A stretch of 64,000 nt of DNA from Owenia fusiformis. Taxonomy: Eukaryota > Annelida > Polychaeta > Sabellida > Oweniidae. Below the pieces are notes generated by a model. That model was not told the DNA's origin. It ran no database searches and saw nothing but the letters and a program-made list of their open reading frames with translations. The position numbers were made by a program, and so were the translations under genes. This document shows positions 42,988 through 59,620 of this stretch, in pieces. How positions within the stretch are numbered: the first letter of the stretch is position 1; every line of letters begins with the position of its first letter. The stretch is from positions 3,418,356 through 3,482,355 of the forward strand of contig CAIIXF020000005.1 of the NCBI GenBank assembly GCA_903813345.2. The letters are read 5' to 3'.

Positions 42988-45900
42988 TTATACTAATTTC
43001 TTGGCCTCAAAGAAAGATTTTAGATGTCGCATCTGCCAGAATCCAGTGACGAGGAGAATTGATGTCTGGCCAATGGACCACCATAAGACTCTCTGATTGG
43101 TCGATTCACTAGTTTGCCTAAATCGTTCTTCACGGTACTGAAAGAGAAAATTCATTACAAGTTTAAATAAATCATATGTAAAGGCAGGATTCCAATATTA
43201 CATTGTATGTATTTTTAATTTAACAATTGCATATAATTGAATTAATTTTAATATTAAATTAAATATCAAGTTATAATCAAACTAAATGTATATATCTGCT
43301 TTGAATGGACTTATTACCCTTTTGCAGATCATCCAAATAAAAATATAGGGATTTCTCATTAAAACTTCTTCTACAGCTAATTAAAATCTAAACCAGCTCA
43401 TAAACAAACCTTCCTAAGTGACCAAATCTTTGTTAATAAACCAAATGAAGCCCTACTCAAGACTGGCCACCCCAGTAAAATAATACAATGTATAGCTCAA
43501 TGTTCTATACTATATTCAAGTAGGCCTACTCATTTTATGGATCATGGACCACCAATTGAAAGTACATTCAAAATAATGCCCAAGGGTGGATTGTGGAAAT
43601 TATCAAATTTTCATACAACAAGTGTGGTCTAAATAGGACGAAGTCTCAAACATAGAGACTCCTTTGTTTGACCTAATTTACGATCTTCTGGCAAATTTTC
43701 AATCATAATAATACTGAATATTCAGTTTGTAATAGCTTTTCAGATTTTATTACAATATCCGAATACAAAGTGGGCCAAATTTACAAGTCCAAAGTGGTCC
43801 AAATTTACAAGTCCAAAGTGGTCCAAATTTTCAAGCCCAAAGTGGTCCAAACTTTCAAGCCCAAAGTGGTCCAGATTTTCAAGCCCAAAGTGGGCCTATA
43901 TTGAAAGTACTTTCAAGATAAGCCTTTTATATGAGGAGAAACGTGAAAACATACGCCCAACTTTTATATCAGAACCAAGGTTCTAATTGAGAAAATGGGT
44001 CATCTAGTATAGTAATTTCAAATTGTTAGTACATTGTAATTCTGAAATTAAAACTGCATAAACCAATTCAGATTAATGCTTTGAACAGAGAATAATATCA
44101 AATATCTACCACATGAAAAGTAAACCATGTATATTTCAAGCACCAGCGGATCAACCTCTCTCTTTGCGTTTTCAAAATCTCACCCGACTTTGAGTTAATT
44201 CACTTTTGACGATTTCTAAACGTAATTGCACATTCCTGATTCGGTCACTTAGGAAATCACGCCTGTCTTCGGTTGGTATAGGTTCATACAAAGGATCTCT
44301 GATCTCTACGTCATAATGCACCCGCTATATAAAACAACAACACGAGTTATGAATTATCACACGAGGACTGGTTACTATAGAGATTACTGACCCTCTGGTA
44401 GTTCTGTTCTTTAGTGATCTGCTCCACTTGGTCTAGCAGTTGTCTTACTCTCAGTTGGAGCTCTGTCAGTTTGTCCTTCTGTGCAATCTCTTTGTAGTCA
44501 TTGGCATGCTCTCCTACTTGGATGTCTAAGTGGACTCGCTGTAAAGAATCTAACCTCATCAACAAATGTAAATTTATGAAATACCACCATTAAACATATG
44601 TTCCAAATGAAACCACTAAGGGAAAAAGATAAACAAGACAGACTGAATCACAGTTTTTTACCACAAAGTAATTTACCCAGCGCATGCACAACAAAACCTT
44701 ATCAGATATTCGCAGTAGTCTGCTCTTGCATCTTTTAAGATAAACATGTATTTTTTCCTTGAATTTTGATGACAAGATGTATGTGTGCACTAATATTAAT
44801 ACTTGTGAATCATTGGAGAAAATGACATATTTTGGGTACCTAAAGGTGGATGCAAATATGGGTGATTTTCTGAAATTAAATGATCAACAAGATTAAAAAT
44901 ATAAATCAGTTACTTTTTTTCATATTCAATATTCGGTGTATATTGCATTACATTCTGATGAGTTATTATAGGAGCACATCAAGTATTTTTATAATTCTGG
45001 GAACGATATAAACTTAAAATAAAGTTGTTACCCACCAGTTGTCCACCACCGAACCAAGCTGATGAGTTGCTATGGAGACAGATGATGTGTTCTCCTGCTG
45101 TGTGAGATGTAAATGTAAATCTTCCTTCTGCTGCATATGTCTACAATAAGTGGTGAACAAGTTATAACAGCCCTTCAGAGGTGAAAAGGGCAATAAAGGG
45201 GTTTATTTGAACTGCTGACAACAGGCAAAATGAATGAAAACAACACAAAATCATTTGAAATTATAATTCTAACATTGAAACAATTACAAAATTTCTCAAA
45301 ACAGTAGTGGTTTTGGGAATAAAATGGCAGAAAATCGCCTGTTGCATACAGTTCATGAAACCACTGTAATTACCCATATGACAACAGGTGTACAGGTATA
45401 GCTGTACAGTACTTGATATTTTATTTTATACTATAATTATACAAACAGATTGAAAGTATTTATGATGCAATAAAATATTAGATATATTGATACAAAGATT
45501 TTATTAATTCTAGTGATCAACTACATTTCAATAAAAAGATTGTATATTTTATCTAAAATGATATGTACTATAAATATAATGTACAATTCTATTTTGATAC
45601 TTACAACTTTTGCAAAATAATTGGTATAGTAATAACTTTGATAGCTTAATCATAATTGCATATTCTCATATACATGTACTCTATTCAAGATTTAAGAGTA
45701 TTAATGCCACACAGTCAACCAAGTCCTTTAAGCTACTTCAGCAAAGCAGGTTGAAATGCCATAATTTTATGACCTATAATGGGTTCACTTTTCAGAAATG
45801 AAAAGCTACCAGGAGAGACACCTATTGGAAATTCACCCTGGTTAAATTTTGCCAAATGTTTTGTGAAAGGAAGGAAAAAATATTCAAATGTTTTTGATTG

Positions 45901-48900
45901 CAACTGTGTAACATTAAACTTATTGAAACCATATGATAAAATAAACAGAAGAGGTTGGGAAAGATATAAGTGATGATCAAGTCAAATGCACGATGTTTGA
46001 TTTCATTTAAGAAAGAAAAGAGGAGGGGTTTATTTTATCAAGAGTGTGACCTAGAATAATGTAGACTTTGTTTGCTGCAGAGCTGCTTTAAGTAAATTAA
46101 GAATTATTAGTATCAAACTCTAATTAACACCAAACACTAAAAACTGCATTTAAGACAAACTCTGAAGACACACAACAGAACTGATCCGTAACCAACATCA
46201 TTGCAATCTCCCAACACCATCCGATATTACCAAATATAAATAAACTTAATACCCTTGCTAGAACTATGTTTTGAGTAGGATCTGTGACTTCAATAAGGAC
46301 ACCAGCGTCAGACCTTGCCAAAAAGTCGTTGGCATCCTGATCATAGTCTAATACTCTATAGTTACCTTGAAGAAACAGGATAGGTGTTACAATATAACTA
46401 AGTATAGTACAGCTACAGAGTAACAAGTACAACATGTATATGGTACATATCCTACACCACATTTAAAAGCACAAGCTGAAATAAATGAAAAATCTGTGAT
46501 TTAAATGAAAATAGCAAAGCAAAGCAAAAAAATGATGTGCAAAATACACTGCCTCCATCGCACGTGGCCGTGGATGCAATGTGAAAGGTGTAAGAAGCTC
46601 ATAGAACAAGGCATTAACAATTTAGAAACATTAGTATTCATTTCAGTTTATTGTTTATCATTAATGCATTGTTTTCACAAGCTAACCTTTGTGCATGTCC
46701 ATCTTCACACCGGAATAGTCTGACAACGGTAAAGTCAGATACCATTTTTTGTGACAACGGTATCTAATAGGGATGGGACGGTTACCCAAAACTGTCCAGT
46801 TCCGCAGTATTTGGGTTCGGTATCGGAACTCGGAACACAAGGCAGCACTTTCGGAACGGGACAAGGGGCTCAAAACCAGCGTAGTTTTAGCGGCTATTCA
46901 CTCCCAAGTGTTTCTGAATCATTACCTGTTTTCTTCCAGAAGCAGTGGTTAGTACTTTTTAGTGATCTTCATGACCACTTGTCACTTTATTGAGGTTAAA
47001 AACTTAATTTTATCGAATTTTACATCGCCATCTTGGATAATGCTGACCGATCATTTTCTCCTTAGGGTATTTCTGTGATAGACTAAGTAATTGCAATGAT
47101 AAACCTAAACAAATTGACCGATCCCTTGGTAATGTTTATCGGGAAGCACATGGGTTAGGGGGCGAATCAAAAATGCAACAAAACAAACCTAGACCGAACA
47201 AGACGTAAGTTCATACTCCCTTCCAATAGTGTAAGCGATCGTATATGTATCTCAAATTAACATGTAAAACCCTGCCCCAATTGCCAAACCGCTAGATTTA
47301 TGATCCTAAGTTACCTTCGCTAGTTATATAAAAAGTTTCAGCGTAGCTGACATTCCTTGAGATGCTCCCTGCGCAGACACATTGCGCAGTAGGTTTATCA
47401 ATGCCGGCCACAGTGACCTGATCTATCGAGAGTTGTCGCTAAGTATCTTGAATTACTCCCTCAAGAGGAGAGGTTAAATTCACTAGATCTGAACGATTCC
47501 TATAAAGGCTGATACCGGGCACATGGAGATCCAGCTGATCGAATATTTAAAGGGGGTTCAGATGATATACTAGGTATGAAAACAAATCCACTTTCAGTTT
47601 CATATGATCAGGTAGATAGAAAGATTACCATATTCACATTAAATAATGCACAGTAGCGTTATCAGTCTTTTTTTGGAATTCAATTTTGTCCCATTCTGAA
47701 GTTCCGAAGGCCAAAATATTGTCCCGTTCCATTCCAAAGTTTTTTTGTTCCGTCCCATCCCTAGTATCTAACTTTACCATTGTCAAGCTATTCCAATGTA
47801 ATCTTATTATTCTCGTAAATATTTTCCAGTTCAGTCCATTGATACTGTCTTATGCTATATAAGATGAGGAGTACTGTATTCTACTAATGTTGAAACATCA
47901 ACAAACAGATGACAATCAAGCAATGCCTACTAGTATACAAATACATGGTTTACACAACAACAAAGAAATGAAAACATATACAAGAATCAAAATCTAAGGG
48001 TGCCATGTGTAGAAACGTCTCAGAATTGACACAAAGAACTAATTTGAAACAATCAAAGAACCAGGTACCCTTAAGTTGACAAAATCAAATGCTAATGAAC
48101 ACGAGCAAACTCCAGCGTTTGCCATCTCTTACCCTTGACAAAACAACTTCTTCATCAGGATCTTCAACAGTCACATGCATAGCCAAATCTTCCACTTGTT
48201 CAAACCTATCTGTGTCCTCGTCCTTGATCTCTAACTTGTAAGCCCCTGAATGTCAACAGCACATGGCCTCATAAACAATATGTTGATGGTTCCATCTTAA
48301 TACCATTTCAGATATATTTCCAAGCTCATGCCAATAAACAATCAATCAAACAAGCAAATACTAGATAATAGAAGACACCTGCAGTCAAAAACATCATAAA
48401 GACAAAATCTGATTGCCATATGATGTGGTCTTCCAACGACACTATAAAAATAGCAGAATTAACAGACACAACAAAAGCCATCAAATGGTTAGTTGGTAGT
48501 ATAGCTAAGCATAAGAAGCATGGCTTCAAAATTTAGTAAGAGACAAATTTTGAATCTGAGGCTATTTCAGCTATCACAGTGCAATATGCATATTCTCTTA
48601 TACAACAATGTCAATTTAGAAAAATACTTAACTTTCAGTCAAGTCTTCTTTGAAAATAATTTGAAACAATTGTGAAGCCATTTTGAAGCATGTTATATAG
48701 CGGTGAGGTAGTGAAGCAGGATGTGACTGTGATACATGTAGTCTGCCAGATGGTGATGGTACAGCTTCACTGGAAAGTGCTATATGTAGCTAATCCTACA
48801 ACTCTTACCCGTGACATTATAATCTTCATATCTGAATCTTTTACTTCAACATGCATGCCAAGTCCTGATACGGTAGGCACATATTCATTTCTTGATTTGT

Positions 48901-50034
48901 CATACATTTCCACTTTATAATTTCCTGAAAAAGGTTTATTTTTAAGCATTGTATTTAGTTTTAGCATTCGTCTAAGACCACTGATAGTCTACAGGACACC
49001 CAATCTAACTCTATGTGCTAATAATGTATAATATGCCTGTATGAAAATTATATAAGTATATAATCAAATAATATCATAGACAACATTCCAAATATTTCAT
49101 TTTTTCCACTTTGGTCAAATTTCATGTTTCCCAATATTTTCACATTTTCCTGAAATCTTTGTTCCCTCCAAAATTCAATAGCAGGTGAGAGTGGGATAAT
49201 GGGTTAATTCTGCATATTCTGTTTATAAACGTTTGTTAATTCATTCATTCATTGTACTCATTCATCATGGATATATCATATACTCATTCAGTATAAACAC
49301 AATACAGAGAATGAACCGTTATGTGTATAATATAAGTTCCATGTACCTCATTTATTAAATAATTCACATAATAAAATACAGATACCAAGATAACAAATTT
49401 ACATATTCTACAAGTTTATTTAATAATATCATGAATGATTAGTTTTGATCTTCGAGCTACAAATGGGATAAAAATAAACAAATAAAATGTATGTTAGCAA
49501 ATACCTATAAAATACTCTTCAATGCATGAACAGAAACAAATTCAACACAAGAAAATAATAAGGGTGAGTCATAAAAATCGACCCAGGTTTTTTGGGTACG
49601 ATATCTGCTTTATATGGGCTTATTAGCCTTTTGCAGATTATTGACATAGACATAGATCGTAACTTACGATACAGAAATCCATTATCTACTTTTAGAAGAA
49701 CGATGCAATCAAATTGTAAGTCACCATGGTTCCAAAAACTTATCCCACATCCACTTACTTTTAATACAGGCTAATTAATTTTGAAAAGTCATTAAGCTTA
49801 GAGCTAAAGTTTCTCAATCATTCTCAATCTGTATCTCCAGTCAATGGCATCGGAGAAAAATCAAAAAATCTGAAAAATATGGGAGATGATATTGTGTTTC
49901 TTACCGACAACCATGGTCTCATCTGGAATTTCTTCGATAAAGCATTTCTTCTCAGTTTCTCCGATGTGGAAATAAAGTCCAGAAATTACAGGAATAAGCA
50001 GAATACAGCAGAAATATGAGAGTATTGTAGTCAT
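42988..50034 (-). CDS. TMED9-like: p24 cargo receptor, TMED9/TMED4-like, 215 aa, with alternative exon clusters
   Basis: p24 proteins cycle between ER and Golgi in COPII and COPI vesicles, selecting cargo such as GPI-anchored proteins. Constant exons: 50034-49905 (signal peptide, mature start GLYFHIGE), 45140-45036 (end of GOLD domain), 43137-42988 (membrane span). Between them lie exon 2 versions A 48924-48809, B 48245-48133, C 46365-46253 and exon 4 versions a 44538-44392, b 44324-44184. Using A and 4a gives the canonical protein: GOLD domain ~21-117 with Cys31 and Cys103 as the likely disulfide, coiled coil ~118-170, membrane span ~183-202. The cytosolic tail has Phe208-Phe209 (COPII) and a KKLV end (COPI dilysine). 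The final TAA is 42988-42990. It is divergent with CCDC149. Confidence 0.97.
43767..43896. repeat. 24-bp tandem repeat in the last TMED intron
   Basis: Five units of aaagtggtccaaattttcaa plus gccc (early copies acaagtcc) and a partial sixth. No coding role seen. Confidence 0.92.
44184..44324 (-). other. TMED9-like: TMED exon 4b, alternative coiled-coil exon
   Basis: 141 nt, 47 codons, starting RVHYDVEI and ending ELTQSR, with acceptor ttatatag and donor gtgaga. Phase 0 to 0, as in exon 4a. Residues RVHxD, the middle RxxxxQLRL and the final R match 4a, but the region [12 protein letters not shown] is replaced by a more acidic, proline-containing stretch. Only 67 bp separate it from exon 4a. 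Confidence 0.85.
44392..44538 (-). other. TMED9-like: TMED exon 4a, canonical coiled-coil exon
   Basis: 147 nt, 49 codons, starting [15 protein letters not shown] and ending EQNYQR, highly typical of TMED9/TMED4. Acceptor tctttacag, donor gtcagt. Confidence 0.95.
46253..46365 (-). other. TMED9-like: TMED exon 2 version C
   Basis: 113 nt, phase 1 to 0. Encodes G + [14 protein letters not shown], then [14 protein letters not shown] and IVLAR. Acceptor cttcaag, donor gtatta. The NYxV, tyrosine/aspartate, VxIEVxD and IxLxR positions match version A. Confidence 0.85.
46768..47763. mobile_element. 996-bp hAT-like element between TMED exon versions B and C
   Basis: TIRs tagggatgggacgg and ccgtcccatcccta with an exact 8-bp duplication gtatctaa (46760-46767 and 47764-47771). 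No transposase frame remains, so it is non-autonomous or decayed. Confidence 0.92.
48133..48245 (-). other. TMED9-like: TMED exon 2 version B
   Basis: 113 nt, phase 1 to 0. Encodes G + [16 protein letters not shown], then [18 protein letters not shown]. Acceptor gacattcag, donor gtaaga. More acidic than version A but with the same fold positions (xYKxE, MHVxVxDxD, V/IxSR). Confidence 0.88.
48809..48924 (-). other. TMED9-like: TMED exon 2 version A (canonical)
   Basis: 116 nt, phase 1 to 0. Encodes G + [16 protein letters not shown], then [12 protein letters not shown] and IIMSR, the version closest to the TMED9/TMED4 consensus. Acceptor ctttttcag, donor gtaaga. Confidence 0.93.

Positions 50035-50337: not shown

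Positions 50338-59620
<9,283 letters not shown>

What the first reader, a model, noticed from the sequence alone, without database searches (positions are those of the whole stretch)
46253..48924. Three tandem alternative versions of the p24 GOLD-domain exon
Exons at 48924-48809, 48245-48133 and 46365-46253 (minus) are homologous, all phase 1 to 0, all with good splice sites and no stops. They encode alternative middles of the GOLD domain, the presumed cargo or partner-binding part of a p24 receptor. Including one keeps the protein intact, and including two would duplicate interior beta strands. This looks like mutually exclusive splicing that diversifies an early-secretory cargo receptor, which I do not know to be described for p24 proteins.
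Basis: partly seen in the sequence, partly recalled or inferred. Interest (0 to 1): 0.88.

Follow-up and report, generated by a model that had tools for sequence, protein, structure and literature searches.

The report
One-of-three exon switch in secretory receptor
A single animal gene for a cargo receptor of the early secretory pathway carries three interchangeable versions of part of its cargo-side domain and two of its stem, which would let one gene make up to six receptors; which versions the animal really uses still has to be read from its RNA.

Summary
The three exons are real, at the stated coordinates. They are homologous alternatives for one GOLD segment (human TMED9 residues 62-100) of an alpha-p24 (TMED4/9-type) gene, the only alpha-type locus found in the 498-Mb genome. 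B and C are exon A's best partners among 1951 candidate exons in the window; 0 of 1000 shuffled introns reach either score. In the whole protein they fit the p24 profile as well as A (193.6, 196.2 against 194.4 bits).

One claim is wrong: all three exons are 3n+2 nt, so including two, or none, gives an early stop. Exactly one must be included, the known frame-shift type of exclusive exon.

One gene could thus make 3 x 2 = 6 receptors.

No RNA or related species could be consulted; use of B, C and 4b is inferred. Exclusive exons are a known kind, and a muscle-specific TMED2 micro-exon is published, so regulated p24 splicing is not new. My searches found no report of exclusive homologous exons in a p24 gene.

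The parts
49905..50034 (-). exon 1 (coding part, 130 nt): start codon, signal peptide (by eye), start of the GOLD domain with the residues matching human TMED9 C49 and E52/E53; donor GTAAGA
48809..48924 (-). exon A (116 nt), alternative GOLD segment, closest to human TMED9 (22 of 39 identical)
48133..48245 (-). exon B (113 nt), alternative GOLD segment (12 of 38 identical to human TMED9), strongly acidic (net charge -9)
46253..46365 (-). exon C (113 nt), alternative GOLD segment (15 of 38 identical to human TMED9; net charge -4); donor GTATTA, weaker by eye
45036..45140 (-). exon 3 (105 nt), constant later part of the GOLD domain with the second Cys; no alternative version in the scan
44392..44538 (-). 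exon 4a (147 nt), canonical segment from the end of the GOLD domain into the coiled coil (43 of 49 identical to human TMED9)
44184..44324 (-). exon 4b (141 nt), homologous alternative to 4a, not in the finding; keeps hydrophobic residues at three of the four published core layers and changes six of the eight listed inter-trimer positions that fall in this exon
44325..44391 (-). 67-nt intron between 4a and 4b; two candidate branch points, about 20 and 45 nt from the donor (my reading)
42988..43137 (-). exon 5 (150 nt), end of the coiled coil, transmembrane helix, tail ending KKLV, stop codon
43411..43428 (-). intron stretch able to pair over 18 nt with exon 4b (44238-44255); a possible regulator of 4b

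Best explanation
This is an alpha-p24 (TMED4/9-type) gene with two clusters of mutually exclusive exons. Cluster 1 (A, B, C) swaps residues 62-100 (human TMED9 numbering) of the lumenal GOLD domain. Cluster 2 (4a, 4b) swaps residues 138-186, from the end of the GOLD domain into the coiled-coil stem. Shown by sequence: homology, matching phases, intact frames and splice sites, and that only one of A/B/C gives a full-length protein. Inferred: each transcript carries one of A/B/C, because zero or two destroys the frame (probably followed by nonsense-mediated decay), and one of 4a/4b, because the 67-nt intron between them is short for efficient splicing. Inferred further: the versions keep the fold and the ER-Golgi cycling tail but change surface charge (A 0, C -4, B -9) and contacts between coiled-coil trimers. 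They would thereby retune which partners, cargo or p24 subunits the receptor joins. One gene would make up to six alpha-p24 receptors, where flies and humans have two alpha genes.
For: Only single inclusion of A/B/C gives a full frame; the other five combinations stop at codon 67, 87 or 88. B and C are the best matches to A in the window; 0 of 1000 shuffles reach them. 4b scores 48 with 4a, the next unrelated candidate 21 (936 candidates); 0 of 1000 shuffles reach 48. With 4a, B and C isoforms score 193.6 and 196.2 bits against the p24 family, A 194.4; five scrambled versions (three of A, two of B, none of C) score 164 to 177.7. A/4b scores 152.5, two scrambled 4b versions 121.7 and 127.9. Third codon positions are strongly diverged (15, 15, 16 of 37 equal), yet frames and splice sites are intact; in a neutral simulation at 43% DNA identity 0.1% keep both (0.55% at 54%). 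Second positions are better kept than third: p 0.009 A-B, 0.027 A-C, 0.0006 4a-4b. Exons 1, 3 and 5 each have one match in the window at E below 0.1, and B and C have no second copy in the genome, so they are not parts of other genes. 4b keeps hydrophobic residues at three of the four published core layers.
Against: No RNA evidence at all, no second species. B-C second-position excess is not significant (p 0.09). Codon usage supports B (0.28, above the maximum 0.21 of 2000 intron samples) but not C (0.02) or 4b (0.14; 99th percentile 0.18); the measure is weak, since constant exon 1, in the training set, scores only 0.07. C and 4a have weak-looking donors. 4a and 4b are both multiples of three, so joint inclusion or skipping keeps the frame. 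phmmer alone does not link 4a and 4b (E 0.92); alone, 4b, B, C and also A do not match the p24 model, while 4a does. L161, one of the four core layers, is Arg in 4b. No competing intron pairing stood out for A/B/C. Functional consequences are inference only.
Confidence: 0.82

Rival explanations
1. B and C (and 4b) are unused relic duplicates of A and 4a, drifting without function.
For: No transcript evidence; C has a weaker-looking donor; codon usage of C and 4b lies inside the range of open intron stretches; B-C second-position excess p 0.09.
Against: Third positions are strongly diverged but frames, splice sites and hydrophobic pattern are intact; the neutral chance of keeping frame and splice sites is 0.001 at 43% and 0.0055 at 54% DNA identity in simulation. 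B and C fit the p24 profile as well as A, scrambled versions do not.
Confidence: 0.08
2. Cluster 1 serves mainly as a switch between productive and unproductive mRNA: joint inclusion or skipping gives early stops, so splicing sets the amount of receptor rather than its kind.
For: All five non-single combinations give an early stop.
Against: That function needs no protein-level conservation of B and C, but both keep p24-like sequence.
Confidence: 0.06
3. 4b is not an exclusive partner of 4a but an optional addition, giving a receptor with a doubled stem (261-262 residues), or 4a and 4b can both be skipped.
For: Both exons are multiples of three and share phase 0-0, so all combinations stay in frame.
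Against: The intron between them is 67 nt, with candidate branch points about 20 and 45 nt from the donor, below the 50-bp limit used for steric interference in human exclusive exons (PMC5740500, section 7); 4b aligns with 4a over its whole length.
Confidence: 0.15

Closest known systems
Homologous mutually exclusive exon clusters of the frame-shift type (criteria of PMC3228551; mechanisms in PMC5740500 section 7)
   Same: Tandem homologous exons of near-equal length, same phases, lengths not divisible by three, inside a folded domain; multi-cluster genes are known (PMC5740500 abstract passage).
   Different: TMED and p24 do not occur in the main texts of four such papers by term search (PMC5740500, PMC9741552, PMC3228551, PMC7954323). 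Here one gene carries a frame-enforced cluster and a second cluster with a very short intron.
Human TMED4/TMED9, Drosophila eclair and p24-2 (alpha-p24)
   Same: The A/4a isoform aligns to human TMED9 over residues 15-215 (E 1.7e-103), with the KKLV tail.
   Different: Flies and humans have two alpha genes each (passage; start of the abstract of PMC10620864 in the listing); here one gene with alternative exons. Term searches of the TMED9 review and the fly p24 paper find no 'splic' or 'exon'.
Muscle/heart-specific micro-exon of TMED2 (beta-p24)
   Same: Regulated splicing of a p24 gene: a heart-specific micro-exon 3 switched on in fetal heart (PMC12925949), changed by CELF1 (PMC4448682); the muscle isoform is lost without QKI (PMC10202634); a tissue-specific TMED2 exon is listed at residues 125-132 (PMC3715437). 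Passages only.
   Different: One cassette micro-exon that is in or out, in a beta-p24; the passages describe no homologous, mutually exclusive alternatives.

Membership tests
mutually exclusive homologous exon cluster (A/B/C) | tandem neighbouring exons with sequence homology | tested here: met
   12-15 of 38 identical; 0 of 2000 residue shuffles for each pair; 0 of 1000 intron shuffles for A-B and A-C
mutually exclusive homologous exon cluster (A/B/C) | similar length, same phase, compatible splice sites, no in-frame stop | tested here: met
   116/113/113 nt, phase 1 to 0, AG..GT
mutually exclusive homologous exon cluster (A/B/C) | joint inclusion or omission not productive | tested here: met
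   5 of 5 non-single combinations stop early
mutually exclusive homologous exon cluster (A/B/C) | RNA junction reads for each exon and absence of productive joint reads | not testable with these tools
   no RNA data held
mutually exclusive homologous exon cluster (4a/4b) | homology, phase, splice sites | tested here: met
   13 of 47 identical, phase 0-0, 0 of 1000 shuffles reach score 48; phmmer alone E 0.92
mutually exclusive homologous exon cluster (4a/4b) | a mechanism against joint inclusion | tested here: inconclusive
   67-nt intron, candidate branch points about 20 and 45 nt from the donor; frame does not forbid joint inclusion
alpha-p24 / TMED4-TMED9 | EMP24_GP25L/GOLD family profile | tested here: met
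   151.7-196.2 bits against cut-off 25.9 for all six isoforms
alpha-p24 / TMED4-TMED9 | closest to TMED9 among solved p24 proteins; GOLD cysteines; KKxx tail | tested here: met
   (TMED9 E 1.7e-103, TMED10 3.4e-28, TMED2 9.7e-13, TMED5 0.0073); tail KKLV; Cys matching human C49 and C121 in exons 1 and 3
alpha-p24 / TMED4-TMED9 | ER-Golgi cycling with COPI/COPII | not testable with these tools
   needs cell experiments
Dscam-type docking/selector RNA control | intron elements near each variant pairing with one docking site | tested here: inconclusive
   (exact 10-nt seeds, mobile element masked): none for A/B/C stronger than shuffles; one strong duplex for exon 4b (1 of 100 shuffles as strong); single species

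The most novel reading that the evidence does not exclude
A single alpha-p24 gene makes six receptors by two independent exon choices, one in the GOLD domain and one in the oligomerising stem. Cells then tune cargo or partner choice and p24 complex assembly by splicing, a layer of regulation in the early secretory pathway done elsewhere by gene duplication.
Probability: 0.5. Interest if true: 0.7.

Novelty: new member of a known kind. Interest (0 to 1): 0.55.

Why it matters
It is debated whether the GOLD domain or the coiled coil sets how p24 proteins assemble and what they carry (passage of PMC10932740). A gene that swaps exactly these two parts by splicing, while keeping the signal peptide, membrane anchor and sorting tail, is a natural domain-swap experiment. 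It gives three GOLD and two stem variants in one context, testable for binding to partner p24s, Tango1 and cargo.

Tried and rejected
Retrocopies that would record spliced isoforms: none found. B or C as parts of separate genes: rejected, since exons 1, 3 and 5 each have one match in the window at E below 0.1. A second alpha-p24 gene: not found. The other five p24 loci look like delta, beta and gamma members (labels by eye and from recall), and exon-by-exon searches can miss weak matches. Further alternatives for exon 3: none in the scan; for exons 1 and 5 only phmmer was run. Related loci in the bacterial/archaeal and viral collections: none, as expected for an animal gene. Organism: not identified; no COX1 match in the assembly. 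Intron pairing as the control of A/B/C: no candidate stronger than shuffles. Structure prediction was not tried: the spliced proteins are not given letter for letter by contiguous window DNA, which that tool requires.

Literature: one open-access library. One search listed 25 of 353 papers, none of the 25 with 'mutually exclusive exons'. Of the 16 papers I opened 8, by term search only. Read: section 5 of PMC11414720 (plus abstract) and section 7 of PMC5740500 (plus passages). Passages only: PMC9741552, PMC3228551, PMC10932740, PMC9888432, PMC6961840, PMC7954323, PMC12925949, PMC10202634, PMC5840707, PMC4448682, PMC3715437, PMC7532667, PMC9875686. All others: search listings.

Changed on re-check: my notebook says the mobile element lies on C1-C12; the list lacks C7. 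Interest was lowered from 0.57 to 0.55 (and interest if true from 0.72 to 0.70) after searches showed the TMED2 precedent.
Full report
WHAT IS THERE. On the minus strand lies one alpha-p24 gene: exon 1 (50034-49905), A (48924-48809), B (48245-48133), C (46365-46253), exon 3 (45140-45036), 4a (44538-44392), 4b (44324-44184), exon 5 (43137-42988, stop). The A/4a isoform of 215 residues matches human TMED9 at E 1.7e-103, TMED10 at 3.4e-28, TMED2 at 9.7e-13 and TMED5 at 0.0073 among solved structures. It scores 194.4 bits against the p24 family model, cut-off 25.9, and ends in KKLV. It is therefore an alpha-p24. A genome-wide search with this protein gives 10 matches: the 5 best are this locus (77-98% identity), the other 5 are other p24 genes (24-43%). 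A search with a B+3+4b segment gives 4 matches, all in this locus. Five other p24 loci were seen; such counts are lower bounds.

THE THREE EXONS. Identity is 15 of 38 (A-B), 14 of 38 (A-C) and 12 of 38 (B-C); residue-shuffled copies never reach these scores (0 of 2000 each). phmmer against 3646 open frames of the window and the five other p24 loci gives A-B E 1e-4, A-C 0.0066, B-C 0.36. I repeated the logic of the published predictor of exclusive exons (similar length, same phase, splice sites, no stop, homology; PMC3228551, passages) over both strands of the window. With A as query there are 1951 candidates outside A. The seven rows printed are B, C or stretches overlapping them. Dinucleotide-shuffled introns reach at most 18, against 73 for B and 67 for C (0 of 1000). 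B (with short flanks) and C have no second copy in the genome (one search also lists A at E 7.4).

EXACTLY ONE. The exons are 116, 113 and 113 nt, all 3n+2. Joining every combination shows that only single inclusion gives a full-length protein. None gives a stop at codon 67; A+B, B+C and A+B+C at codon 87; A+C at codon 88. The arrangement is the frame-shift type of exclusive exons: 377 human clusters (60%) in PMC5740500 hold exons whose lengths are not divisible by three (section 7).

A SECOND CLUSTER. Exon 4a encodes the segment from the end of the GOLD domain into the coiled coil (43 of 49 identical to human TMED9, residues 138-186). After 67 nt comes 4b, phase 0-0, with 13 of 47 residues identical to 4a. 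It scores 48 with 4a where the next unrelated candidate of 936 scores 21 and shuffled introns at most 7 (0 of 1000). phmmer alone is not significant (E 0.92), so the case rests on position, phase, splice sites and global alignment. Both exons are multiples of three, so frame does not forbid joint inclusion. The intron is 67 nt, and its two candidate branch points lie about 20 and 45 nt from the donor, under the 50-bp limit used for steric interference in PMC5740500. The branch points are my reading, not a measurement.

ARE THE EXTRA EXONS ALIVE? Four lines. (1) In the whole protein with 4a, B and C score 193.6 and 196.2 bits against the p24 model, equal to A (194.4), while five scrambled versions (three of A, two of B, none of C) score 164 to 177.7. 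A/4b gives 152.5, against 121.7 and 127.9 for two scrambled versions of 4b. Scanned alone, only 4a of these exons matches the model; A, B, C and 4b do not. (2) Third codon positions are strongly diverged (15, 15 and 16 of 37 equal; about 28% expected from intron composition, my arithmetic), yet frames and splice sites are intact. In a neutral simulation (substitutions only) at 43% DNA identity 0.1% keep both and 0 of 2000 keep 37% protein identity; at 54% the figures are 0.55% and 1.6%. (3) Second positions are better kept than third: p 0.009 (A-B), 0.027 (A-C), 0.0006 (4a-4b), but 0.09 (B-C). (4) Codon usage: B is above all 2000 open intron samples; C and 4b are inside their range, and so is constant exon 1. 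The fourth line is weak and supports B only. The weak-looking donors of C and 4a count against strong constitutive use.

WHAT THE SWITCH CHANGES. The switched GOLD segment equals human TMED9 residues 62-100. Nine columns are hydrophobic and six invariant in human TMED9, A, B and C alike, as expected if the strands are kept and the surface varies. Net charge goes from 0 (A) to -4 (C) and -9 (B). The cysteine pair and E52, whose mutation to Arg weakens binding of a misfolded cargo in human TMED9 (PMC11414720, section 5), lie in constant exons 1 and 3. Cargo binding at that edge should therefore be shared, and partner contacts or other cargo sites are likelier to change. In the stem, the paper names four core layers (L161, L164, L171, I178). 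4b has Arg, Leu, Val, Val there, and Ile, Leu, Leu at three further heptad positions that I added (168, 175, 182). Eight of the paper's 14 residues that may bridge trimers fall in this exon; 4b differs at six of them, among them Q177, whose mutation to Ala compromises TMED9 oligomers. The likely effect is a change in oligomer or partner choice. [quoted passage not shown] These functional steps are inference.

REGULATION. Among pairings with an exact 10-nt seed (mobile element masked), none between introns of A/B/C is stronger than shuffles give. One does stand out for 4b: 18 nt within exon 4b (44238-44255) pair with 43411-43428 in the next intron, with one G-U pair; the duplex with 12-nt flanks is -35.0 kcal/mol, matched by 1 of 100 shuffles. 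It could hide 4b; it is a lead from one species only.

NOVELTY. Exclusive exons are well known. Six searches paired a p24/TMED term with a splicing or exclusive-exon term, and four more covered exclusive exons or p24 structure alone. None listed a report of exclusive homologous exons in a p24/TMED gene, but most hits were seen as listings only. I opened 8 of the 16 papers by term search. They show a real precedent for regulated p24 splicing: TMED2 has a heart-specific micro-exon 3 and muscle isoforms (a tissue-specific exon placed at residues 125-132), a cassette exon and not an exclusive pair. TMED and p24 do not occur in the texts of PMC5740500, PMC9741552, PMC3228551 and PMC7954323. Gene annotation databases of invertebrates could not be searched, so predicted isoforms may already be listed there. 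I therefore rate it a new member of a known kind, with an interesting place in biology.

Noticed in passing
window 44324-44184 and 44391-44325: Second alternative exon 4b for the start of the coiled coil, with a 67-nt intron after 4a; not in the finding as given.
   Followed up: yes
window 44238-44255 with 43411-43428: 18-nt near-perfect complementarity between exon 4b and its downstream intron (-35.0 kcal/mol with flanks; 1 of 100 shuffles as strong).
   Followed up: partly
window 46756-47775: Dispersed element with inverted ends and an apparent 8-bp duplicated flank (TTAGATAC) in the B-C intron; looks like a hAT-type element (label from recall); 51 matches listed on contigs C1-C6 and C8-C12, this copy included.
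   Followed up: partly
window about 50338-51200, plus strand: Head-to-head neighbour gene of the CCDC149 family (Pfam CC149, E 6.1e-29, from exons joined by hand), its apparent start about 300 bp from the p24 start, suggesting a shared promoter.
   Followed up: partly
window 43742-43931: 24-nt tandem repeat in the last intron of the p24 gene.
   Followed up: no
window 43292-43345 and 49601-49654: A 54-nt sequence occurs at 81% identity in the first and the last intron of the same gene.
   Followed up: no
G000 C8:5960511-5961098 (L005): Intronless p24 gene in an open frame of 226 codons, gamma-like by eye; possibly a retrogene that stayed functional.
   Followed up: no
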